DNA of 64,000 nucleotides from Chitinophaga filiformis (GTDB taxonomy: Bacteria > Bacteroidota > Bacteroidia > Chitinophagales > Chitinophagaceae), in contig NZ_JAKIRP010000019.1 in assembly GCF_021646545.1 (NCBI RefSeq), positions 1-64,000 on the forward strand, read 5' to 3'. The notes beneath the pieces are model-generated. The model did no database searches. It was not told the DNA's origin and saw only the letters and a list, made by a program, of their open reading frames with translations. A program made the translations under genes and the position numbers. Shown here piece by piece: positions 18,201 through 19,740 of this stretch (position 1 is the first letter of the stretch; the number at the start of each line of letters is the position of its first letter).

Positions 18201-18606
18201 TAGTACCGGTCACCAAACCCGTGGTCATACTACTCACCGGCAGCTTTTCAGGATACAAGGTATCTACAGCCAGCAGTTTACCGGTGTCTGTGCCAACAAA
18301 AGCCAGCTTACCCGAGTAATTGTAGTTGTCGTAAAATGTATAGGTAAGAGGGGTCAATGCCGAAGCAGAGATGCCAGGTAATGGATTAGTTGCAGTTATT
18401 GCTGTCGTATCACCAGCTGCAGCAGGATCAACCTTTGCCTCAGTTTCGCCCCCAACACCGGAGTCGAACCCGTCGAACATAGTTACACTGCTGGTTGCGG
18501 TATACAGCCTGCTGCCATCATGACTATAAACCGCCAGATCAGCTTCTGCGGGAGCTACATAAGAGATAGATCGGGATGCTGAAGCAGCGTTCATACTTGC
18601 CTGCAA
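15250..18606 (-). CDS. RHS-repeat core protein, C-terminal part (split by in-frame TGA)
   Basis: 1118 residues from a TTG at 18606, but the frame is open back to the TGA at 18625-18627, in phase with the preceding frame. It holds YD/RHS repeats (YDELGQLKLKRLG, YDANGNIRTM, YDGNGNMTVD, YQYDATGNKLSK) and the RHS-associated core, including DHLGNVRTVLTD, ETHYYPYGLTMAGISS, RYNGKELQ, YDYGARIYD, GRWAAIDPL and NPVRFIDPDGR. About 250 residues follow the core (from about residue 868), the usual place for a variable toxin domain; no known toxin motif is recognised there. Without the upstream part it has no signal peptide, so on its own it should not be exported. Confidence 0.8.
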   Translation of the reverse strand: MQASMNAASASRSISYVAPAEADLAVYSHDGSRLYTATSSVTMFDGFDSGVGGETEAKVDPAAAGDTTAITATNPLPGISASALTPLTYTFYDNYNYSGKLAFVGTDTGKLLAVDTLYPEKLPVSSMTTGLVTGTKVRVLGTNKWLTTTTYYNDKGRAIQVISENNLGGKDVLTTLYNFKGAILATYLRHQNPKSVTLQSTLLTSMTYDHGGRLLTVRKRLNDDVSQERLVAASSYDELGQLKLKRLGVASSGSVIDSLNYTYNIRGWLQGINKNFVNSGSSTSNWFGQELSYDYGFDSSQYNGNISGVKWKTRADSAWAYGYSYDKANRLTGAYFTQKNGGSWAQDKKDFSVSNLSYDANGNIRTMLQKGMIGTTSKTIDSLVYTYSSNNISNRLRGVRDIDSSITRSAMLGDFIDGNTSTDDYAYDGNGNMTVDLNKRIASITYNHLNLPSTIIITGKGTITYQYDATGNKLSKTVLDNTGSSSRTTVTDYAGAFVYKQDSLELISHEEGRIRPIYKSGQPVQYAYDYFEKDHLGNVRTVLTDQTDLTMYAATMETEVAAQEVALFSNVEETRTEKPSGYPEDQTTEENKFVAKLNAKTGGKKIGPSLVLRVMAGDTVQISARAFYKSQGPTDNNSKAPVEDMVAGLVQAFGGTATGNGSHASEAIANNTPFNAEFYNINYQRLKEKNNDNGQSNRPKAYLNFVLFDDDFKLVEGNSGVRQVKESPDELQELEVEKMAVEESGFLYVYTSNESQQDVFFDNVVLGVNSGPLLEETHYYPYGLTMAGISSNALKGPNYAENRMRYNGKELQSKEFGDGSGFEMYDYGARIYDVQVGRWAAIDPLLEVSRRWTPYNFAYNNPVRFIDPDGRLTYDPKNKRYVNDAGEEVPMADAIAEIQSKGTTIYRSSEDGDEDPNKAANNEGFQFKNPLWYKPWIQQVEYTKRSKSKYLTFDAKNIKTYSRKPTGTDYWRSKLLQVTLGVAAGRGAEYLVNLLQGAGLISSEGSNAGDLTAALGVAFGTTALTDWGITVEEVGEYVEAEAWYGVAQINGRTGKVDAVDYYGSETVRIQVGYKRIERIVNTVTNRVVYTHTTHYSMSPGLINSSQPALPKQDVGKLY

Positions 18607-18624
18607 AGTATCCCTGGTAGATGT

Positions 18625-18627
18625 TCA
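18625..18627 (-). other. In-frame TGA interrupting the DUF6443/RHS reading frame
   Basis: On the minus strand the frame reads ...ATC TAT AAG TGA ACA TCT ACC AGG GAT ACT TTG CAG... The sense frame continues without shift into the RHS half (TSTRDTLQASM). A single base change to TCA or CGA would restore one continuous protein of about 1,500 residues. Confidence 0.9.
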
Positions 18628-19740
18628 CTTATAGATGGCTGTCATAGTGGGGCGATTCAACTCGTCATAGAAAGTAACCAGCCATTCCATAGGAGATTTG
18701 GTCCGCTGAACGGAGTCCTGGGTAAATACAAGCCTGTCGCGCACATCATATACCATGAATACCCTTCCTGCACCAGGTACCTTTTTCACCACCATACGTT
18801 GCCTTCCGTCATATTGATACTGGAAACACAATTCATCGGCAACTGCAGTGCTTATTGTCCAGGAACCCTTAATAGCGTCTACAGCCAAAGGCGGTATAAC
18901 AAAGCGGAGATTTCCCAAATCGTCATACACATAATAAGTACATAACCAACCTATATGTCCCGTACCGGGATTACCTGAAATCTGCACCTTTTTCAATACA
19001 ACCTGGCCCTGCTTATCCTTATATTCAATCACCTGGTTTCCCTGCTCATCAATAGTTACATTCTCCTGTAGTTGTCCCGCAGCGTAGTTGCCTGTACTGG
19101 CGGGTATCCCGGCTCCTATATTCCACAGTCTTACCGAATCAGCAACAGCATTCACCTGATATCGTGATTCTACAGGATGACTCACCCAGCTATTACCGGG
19201 TGCGTAGCCTTTAAGCGGTCTGTTAAGTGGAGATTGTTCAAATGTCTGCTGACTGTAGTAAACACTTTCTCCCACTACGCCCCGATTGAGTACTCCATTC
19301 TGAAAAAATGCTTTCTGCGCATTGAACGGGTCGGTTTTAAACTTACCATCGTTTACATTGCCCGACTGCTGCACGTAGGGAAGATACTTATATTGCTCTC
19401 TTCCATAGCTATCATATACCACTGGTGCCACAAAATCTTTTCCACTGCTACTTATACCTTTTGAAACCGTTTGTACCGGACGGCCAAGACCATCAAAGTA
19501 TTGGGTAGTCTGCTTCACTTCCCTGATTTTCCTTGCAGAAGAAACAACCGTATTTGTATCCGTCAGCGGCATATCCGGCTCCCAGGTACGTACATAGTTG
19601 ATAGTACTACTTGTGTAAGGAGTCGGTAAGGTCACCGGAGTCACGGCAGGCCGGGATGCACCTCCAGGCTTATTCTGCGCCTGCAGTGTTAAGTTCAGCA
19701 GCAGGCACAGGCTAGATATATAAAAGGAAATTTTGTTCAT
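18625..19740 (-). CDS. DUF6443-domain protein, N-terminal part of the split RHS protein
   Basis: About 371 residues from the ATG at 19740 (MNKISFY); a TTG at 19755 also opens the frame. A signal peptide (ISSLCLLLNLTLQAQ) precedes a Pro/Thr-rich linker, then the DUF6443 domain of Bacteroidota RHS proteins: NYVRTWEPDMPL, REVKQTTQYFDGLGRPVQTVSKG and VVYDSYGREQYKYLPY. The last residues (FYDELNRPTMTAIYK) are in the middle of an RHS-type repeat, so the stop does not fall at a domain boundary. It starts 25 bases after the 1156-aa partner's stop codon, consistent with an operon. Confidence 0.85.
   Translation of the reverse strand: MNKISFYISSLCLLLNLTLQAQNKPGGASRPAVTPVTLPTPYTSSTINYVRTWEPDMPLTDTNTVVSSARKIREVKQTTQYFDGLGRPVQTVSKGISSSGKDFVAPVVYDSYGREQYKYLPYVQQSGNVNDGKFKTDPFNAQKAFFQNGVLNRGVVGESVYYSQQTFEQSPLNRPLKGYAPGNSWVSHPVESRYQVNAVADSVRLWNIGAGIPASTGNYAAGQLQENVTIDEQGNQVIEYKDKQGQVVLKKVQISGNPGTGHIGWLCTYYVYDDLGNLRFVIPPLAVDAIKGSWTISTAVADELCFQYQYDGRQRMVVKKVPGAGRVFMVYDVRDRLVFTQDSVQRTKSPMEWLVTFYDELNRPTMTAIYK

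What the first reader, a model, noticed from the sequence alone, without database searches (positions are those of the whole stretch)
18600..18650. RHS gene split by a single in-frame TGA
The DUF6443 half (18625-19740) and the RHS-core half (15250-18606) are in the same frame; only TGA at 18625-18627 separates them, and the sequence runs on through it (TAIYK-stop-TSTRDTLQASM). The stop falls in the middle of a repeat, so it is not a natural domain boundary, and the second half lacks a signal peptide. Options: a true nonsense mutation that silences the toxin, a sequencing or assembly error, or stop-codon read-through.
Basis: partly seen in the sequence, partly recalled or inferred. Interest (0 to 1): 0.7.

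Follow-up and report, generated by a model that had tools for sequence, protein, structure and literature searches.

The report
RHS toxin gene cut by stop codon
A large toxin-like gene in a soil bacterium is cut in two by one stop codon that none of the relatives examined carry, most likely a recent mutation that silenced the toxin while the neighbouring, presumably protective, gene survived; this is an ordinary kind of event.

Summary
On the minus strand of a Chitinophaga genome a DUF6443–RHS gene starts at ATG 19740, meets TGA at 18627-18625, and stays open in the same frame for 1,124 more codons to TAA 15252-15250. The other five frames of that stretch hold 38–124 stops each.

The stop is private to this copy in the sample. 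Of 82 distinct relatives readable at the aligned codon, 0 have a stop, Trp or Cys. Of 84 distinct relatives, 72 run unbroken into the RHS core, 9 end at a contig edge, 3 are broken elsewhere. The part behind the stop shows no relaxation. So the stop is recent or an error, not an ancestral split or conserved recoding site.

A membrane-protein gene follows. Its pairing with this tip recurs beside an unbroken RHS gene in one other genome; in two more it stands beside only a short tip remnant.

Best reading: a recent nonsense mutation silenced an RHS toxin and left its presumed immunity gene. Such decay is in print for Rhs genes (PMC5727410, passages). Reads were not available, so an assembly error remains possible.

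The parts
19766..23236 (-). Upstream partner gene, same direction; 1,156-residue protein, signal-peptide-like start read by eye, one YD repeat near its C-terminus
   Evidence: Pfam RHS_repeat just under its cut-off (21.2 against 22 bits), NCBIfam YD repeat over its cut-off; a relative lies upstream of the RHS gene in 17 of 20 regions
18625..19740 (-). First part of the RHS gene: signal-peptide-like N-terminus, DUF6443, YD-repeat shell; 371 codons plus TGA
18625..18627 (-). In-frame TGA, followed by A
   Evidence: no stop there in 82 of 82 readable relatives
15994..18624 (-). RHS shell behind the stop, same frame, with the RHS-associated core
15250..15993 (-). Variable C-terminal tip (presumed toxin domain, 247 codons right behind the DPDGR motif) and natural stop TAA
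14790..15248 (-). Presumed immunity gene: 152-residue hydrophobic protein, ATG one base behind the RHS stop

Best explanation
This is a polymorphic RHS toxin gene of a Chitinophaga species, recently broken by one nonsense codon. Shown: one frame that relatives keep unbroken, a private stop, and a conserved remainder behind it. Inferred: translation ends after 371 residues, so the cell exports at most a fragment of the shell and makes no tip-bearing protein. The presumed immunity gene behind it is still open and may still protect against kin that carry the working pair. Relatives suggest the later course: in two other genomes the tool places in the genus, the same immunity family stands beside only the last residues of the tip.
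For: Both parts are homologous to one continuous frame in relatives: 72 of 84 unbroken. At the aligned codon 0 of 82 stop, and the two closest own-genome paralogues (both counted among the 84) are unbroken, with 1,533 and 1,469 codons. The part behind the stop deviates at 5 of 439 columns that are invariant in 16 unbroken relatives; each relative left out in turn deviates at 1 to 18. The ratio of distances behind and before the stop is 0.861, against 0.881 among relatives (16 of the 20 regions used: two broken and two more distant ones were left out, and none of the 77 named loci). Breaks recur in the family at other sites: 3 of 84, or 3 of 75 not cut by a contig edge; one is a single in-frame TAA in C. 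oryziterrae with 1,169 open codons behind it. TGA is an ordinary stop here: it ends 10 of 40 long ORFs of the window, this one included. The tip-immunity pair is intact in one genome, and reduced to tip remnant plus immunity gene in two.
Against: No reads and no second strain of the species were available, so an assembly error remains possible. Strong conservation behind the stop is also what an error or functional read-through would give. The base after TGA is A, a context reported as leaky in E. coli (PMC5289835, passages). Toxicity of the tip and protection by the neighbour are untested. The tip remnants are short (E about 0.001), and in a third genome with a weak immunity match (G008) no remnant was found. 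PMC5727410 also reports orphan immunity genes that themselves acquired nonsense mutations.
Confidence: 0.78

Rival explanations
1. Sequencing or assembly error: the living strain has an intact gene.
For: The part behind the stop shows no relaxation. The assembly is imperfect: contigs C22/C23 and C12/C14 share stretches of about 20 kb at 100% identity, and its contamination score is 6.22.
Against: A substitution to an in-frame stop is a rare kind of consensus error (general knowledge; the sequencing platform is not known to me), while breaks are seen in 3 of 84 relatives, though some of those could be errors too. The stretch 18000-19200 has no second near-identical copy in the assembly; the next matches are 78% identical, so no collapsed copy is visible.
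Confidence: 0.12
2. Functional read-through or recoding: some ribosomes pass the TGA and make full-length toxin at a low level.
For: The frame and its conservation continue behind the stop. The next base is A, which favours misreading by tRNA-Trp in E. coli (PMC5289835, passages).
Against: 0 of 82 relatives have a stop, Trp or Cys at the codon. No tRNA-Sec over the cut-off in the own genome (150 of 558 first-look candidates scored); the five weaker hits coincide with ARAGORN-called Leu, Ser, Ser, Cys and Tyr tRNAs, and such weak hits ring in all 14 control genomes. A suppressor tRNA was not searched for genome-wide.
Confidence: 0.05
3. Functional split: ribosomes restart behind the stop (TTG 18606 or ATG 18594) and the two pieces assemble into one shell.
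For: Possible start codons lie 18 and 30 bases behind the stop. Two-part RHS shells are known from Tc toxins (recalled).
Against: The second piece would lack a signal peptide (read by eye). No relative examined is split at this codon.
Confidence: 0.03
4. Ancestral gene boundary: two genes that relatives also keep apart.
For: None found.
Against: 72 of 84 relatives are continuous from the first part to the core, and of 82 readable ones none stops at this codon.
Confidence: 0.01

Closest known systems
DUF6443-RHS proteins of Chitinophaga (Pfam PF20041 with NCBIfam TIGR03696)
   Same: Same domain order, 62-86% protein identity in the first part over the 20 regions, variable tip, YD-repeat gene upstream
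   Different: This copy has one in-frame TGA
Pseudogenised Rhs toxins with retained immunity genes in Snodgrassella alvi (PMC5727410, passages seen)
   Same: Toxin gene silenced by nonsense mutation, immunity gene kept
   Different: Other phylum and other delivery (type VI); there rhs3 has multiple nonsense mutations, here there is a single stop in an otherwise conserved frame
Programmed UGA read-through or selenocysteine genes (recalled)
   Same: In-frame UGA with coding sequence behind it
   Different: No conserved stop, no Trp or Cys at the codon in 82 relatives, no tRNA-Sec over the cut-off

Membership tests
Polymorphic RHS toxin (DUF6443 type) | DUF6443 plus RHS repeats and RHS-associated core in one frame | tested here: met
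   one unbroken frame in 72 of 84 relatives; interrupted in this copy
Polymorphic RHS toxin (DUF6443 type) | Variable C-terminal tip behind the core | tested here: met
   The tip matches in 4 of 79 genus genomes, own included, and 1 of the other 3 matches over nearly its full length; DNA of 17800-19500 matches in 72 of 79, own included
Polymorphic RHS toxin (DUF6443 type) | Cognate immunity gene behind the tip | tested here: inconclusive
   The adjacent gene pair recurs in one other genome; protection not tested
Polymorphic RHS toxin (DUF6443 type) | Intact reading frame | tested here: not met
   TGA at 18627-18625
Programmed UGA read-through or Sec insertion | Stop conserved among relatives, or Cys or Trp in its place | tested here: not met
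   0 of 82
Programmed UGA read-through or Sec insertion | tRNA-Sec in the genome | tested here: not met
   0 hits over the cut-off; the five weaker hits coincide with ordinary tRNAs
Programmed UGA read-through or Sec insertion | Leaky sequence context | tested here: inconclusive
   The next base is A, reported as leaky in E. coli (PMC5289835, passages); not measured in this phylum
Programmed UGA read-through or Sec insertion | Full-length product | not testable with these tools
   Needs proteomics
Tc toxin TcB/TcC pair | SpvB/TcdB-type domains in the upstream partner (domain names recalled) | tested here: not met
   At E 0.001 the partner matches only an RHS or YD repeat in Pfam and NCBIfam

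The most novel reading that the evidence does not exclude
The UGA-A context acts as a brake: a small share of ribosomes reads through, so that the cell carries a low dose of full-length toxin at low cost beside an open immunity gene.
Probability: 0.04. Interest if true: 0.6.

Novelty: new member of a known kind. Interest (0 to 1): 0.2.

Why it matters
It catches a polymorphic toxin at what looks like the first step of loss. An unbroken pair (G062), a fresh nonsense copy (window), and immunity genes with only a tip remnant (G070, G005) together suggest a course in which immunity outlives the toxin. A course of that kind is already described in bee gut bacteria (PMC5727410, passages). The tip and its membrane-protein neighbour reach no Pfam cut-off and may be an undescribed toxin-immunity pair.

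Tried and rejected
Ancestral split: rejected within the sample. Selenocysteine: rejected. Long-standing pseudogene: rejected, since the part behind the stop is as conserved as in unbroken copies. Pairwise dN/dS was not informative: a pattern error left one relative only, and dS was above 2; invariant-column counts and distance ratios replaced it. Sequence search of solved structures gave no match at E 0.01 for either part. PADLOC gave none for four proteins. The structure model of a relative's shell was too poor to place the break in a fold (mean pLDDT 40), so no fold search was run. A scan of viral contigs for the junction found nothing. Paper searches in the held library: 'DUF6443' 0 papers; Rhs with premature stop codon and polymorphic toxin 5 papers, listing and abstract starts seen; UGA read-through terms 124 papers, 20 listed; Rhs with Bacteroidetes, cocoon and immunity terms 45 papers, 20 listed; Chitinophaga with Rhs and toxin 3 papers, listing and abstract starts seen; Rhs with pseudogene and nonsense terms 23 papers, 20 listed. 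Passages were seen of PMC5727410, PMC8125069 and PMC5289835. In PMC8125069 the passages on nonsense mutations concern vgrG genes, not Rhs. The polymorphic-toxin survey PMC3482391 holds none of my five terms in the held part of its text.

Full report
Where it is. The window is part of contig C10 of a 9.07 Mb genome in 29 contigs. Genomes that the tool calls the same genus (G015, G020) have contigs with the same lengths as named Chitinophaga filiformis and C. ginsengisoli records, so the host is most likely a Chitinophaga; its species is not known to me.

The observation. On the minus strand a gene opens at ATG 19740 (or TTG 19755) with a signal-peptide-like start (read by eye; my hydropathy cut-off did not flag it). 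It carries DUF6443 (E 8e-42) and meets TGA at 18627-18625. The same frame goes on for 1,124 codons to TAA 15252-15250, with an RHS repeat and the RHS-associated core (E 5.3e-14). The other five frames of 15250-18624 hold 71, 124, 38, 66 and 51 stops.

Relatives. DNA of 17800-19500 matches in 72 of 79 genus genomes, own included (the tool scored four first-look candidates per genome and did not list all matches). I took 20 regions of the best matches (18 from other genomes, two own-genome paralogues) and 77 named loci (the tool kept the best 80 of 197 confirmed stretches, 77 distinct). Of these 97 loci 84 are distinct by sequence. At the codon aligned with the TGA, 2 of the 84 end before the place. 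Among the other 82 there are 0 stops, 0 Trp and 0 Cys, and 0 have a stop within ten codons either side. From the first part into the core, 72 of 84 are one open frame, 9 run into a contig edge, and 3 are broken elsewhere. Two of these (L053, L060) change frame. The third (L080, C. oryziterrae) has a single in-frame TAA at a different place, near residue 310 of the first part, with 1,169 open codons behind it. In the own genome there are 11 DUF6443 matches; the 10 others lie in open frames of 1,405 codons or more. Of 21 RHS-core matches, 16 lie in frames of 1,380 codons or more, one is the window gene, and four lie in short frames of 160-337 codons. Three pairs among the 16 are repeats on redundant contigs.

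Age of the stop. I compared the window with 16 unbroken relatives (16 of the 20 regions, the two own-genome paralogues included; the broken L053 and L060 and the more distant L059 and L061 were left out). Behind the stop, 439 columns are invariant in all 16 and the window deviates at 5 (0.011). Each of the 16, left out in turn with the window among the rest, deviates at 1 to 18 (0.002 to 0.040). Before the stop the window deviates at 3 of 161, the others at 0 to 11. The ratio of distances behind and before the stop is 0.861 (sd 0.148, 16 pairs) for the window and 0.881 (sd 0.193, 120 pairs) among relatives. There is no sign of relaxation behind the stop: it is recent, or an error, or the part is still used. 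The trees of the two parts place the window gene beside different relatives, which suggests recombination among shells; support in the first part's tree is low (0.696).

Tip and neighbour. The last 247 codons, right behind the DPDGR motif, reach no Pfam cut-off (best DUF4627, 16 of 24.9 bits), nor does the neighbour (best Peptidase_M50B, 14.4 of 26 bits). Among 79 genus genomes the tip matches in 4, own included; only G062 matches nearly in full (59%), inside a frame of 1,494 codons without a stop. In an even sample of 396 genomes of the order it matches in 3: own, G069 again, and G179 of another genus of the family (40%, in a 395-codon frame near another core fragment). One base behind the RHS stop a 152-residue hydrophobic protein begins. 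In G062 a 37%-identical protein lies right behind the RHS gene, so the pair recurs together once. The protein matches in 5 of 79 genus genomes, own included. In G005 a copy of about 35% stands beside about 22 residues, with core fragments some kilobases away. In G008 the match is weak and no remnant was found. The remnants are short (E about 0.001) but lie where the tip's end is expected.

Mechanism. Most likely a single recent nonsense mutation ends translation after 371 residues, so that the shell is not completed and the tip not made, while the presumed immunity gene stays. Shown: frame, private stop within the sample, conservation, one recurrence of the pair. Inferred: loss of toxin, kept immunity, course of decay. 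Rivals: an assembly error, which only reads can exclude; read-through, for which the next base A is a leaky context in E. coli (PMC5289835, passages), but for which no relative gives support and no tRNA-Sec over the cut-off is found; and a restart behind the stop, whose product would lack a signal peptide.

Comparison with print. Passages of PMC5727410 report an Rhs gene of Snodgrassella alvi pseudogenised by multiple nonsense mutations, and orphan immunity genes whose context suggests that the toxin was pseudogenised after both were acquired; some such immunity genes have acquired nonsense mutations too. The present case is of that kind. No paper in the held library contains the name DUF6443.

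Checking. On the second reading I mended the tip's start (behind DPDGR, not from DPDG), the restart distances, the identity ranges, the count of partner genes (17 of 20), and confirmed the single stop of L080.

Noticed in passing
window 14790-15993 with L169, L177, L183, L184: A tip and membrane-protein pair below every Pfam cut-off recurs: unbroken pair in G062, orphan tip cassette in G179, immunity relative with only a tip remnant in G070 and G005. It may be an undescribed toxin-immunity pair.
   Followed up: partly
window 19766-23236: A relative of the upstream YD-repeat partner lies upstream of the RHS gene in 17 of 20 regions, but its matched segments are only 26-46% identical, while the RHS shells there are 62-86% identical.
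   Followed up: no
L080, 10937 (C. oryziterrae): Another DUF6443-RHS gene with a single in-frame stop (TAA) at a different place.
   Followed up: partly
own-genome contigs C22/C23 (L170-L173) and C12/C14 (L174, L175): Stretches of 20,000, 20,000 and 19,994 bases are 100% identical between contigs, so the assembly is redundant; this may explain the contamination score of 6.22.
   Followed up: partly
own-genome contig C16, 93-3588: Three RHS-core matches, one of them below the cut-off, in short frames within 3.5 kb; they look like orphan RHS cassettes.
   Followed up: no
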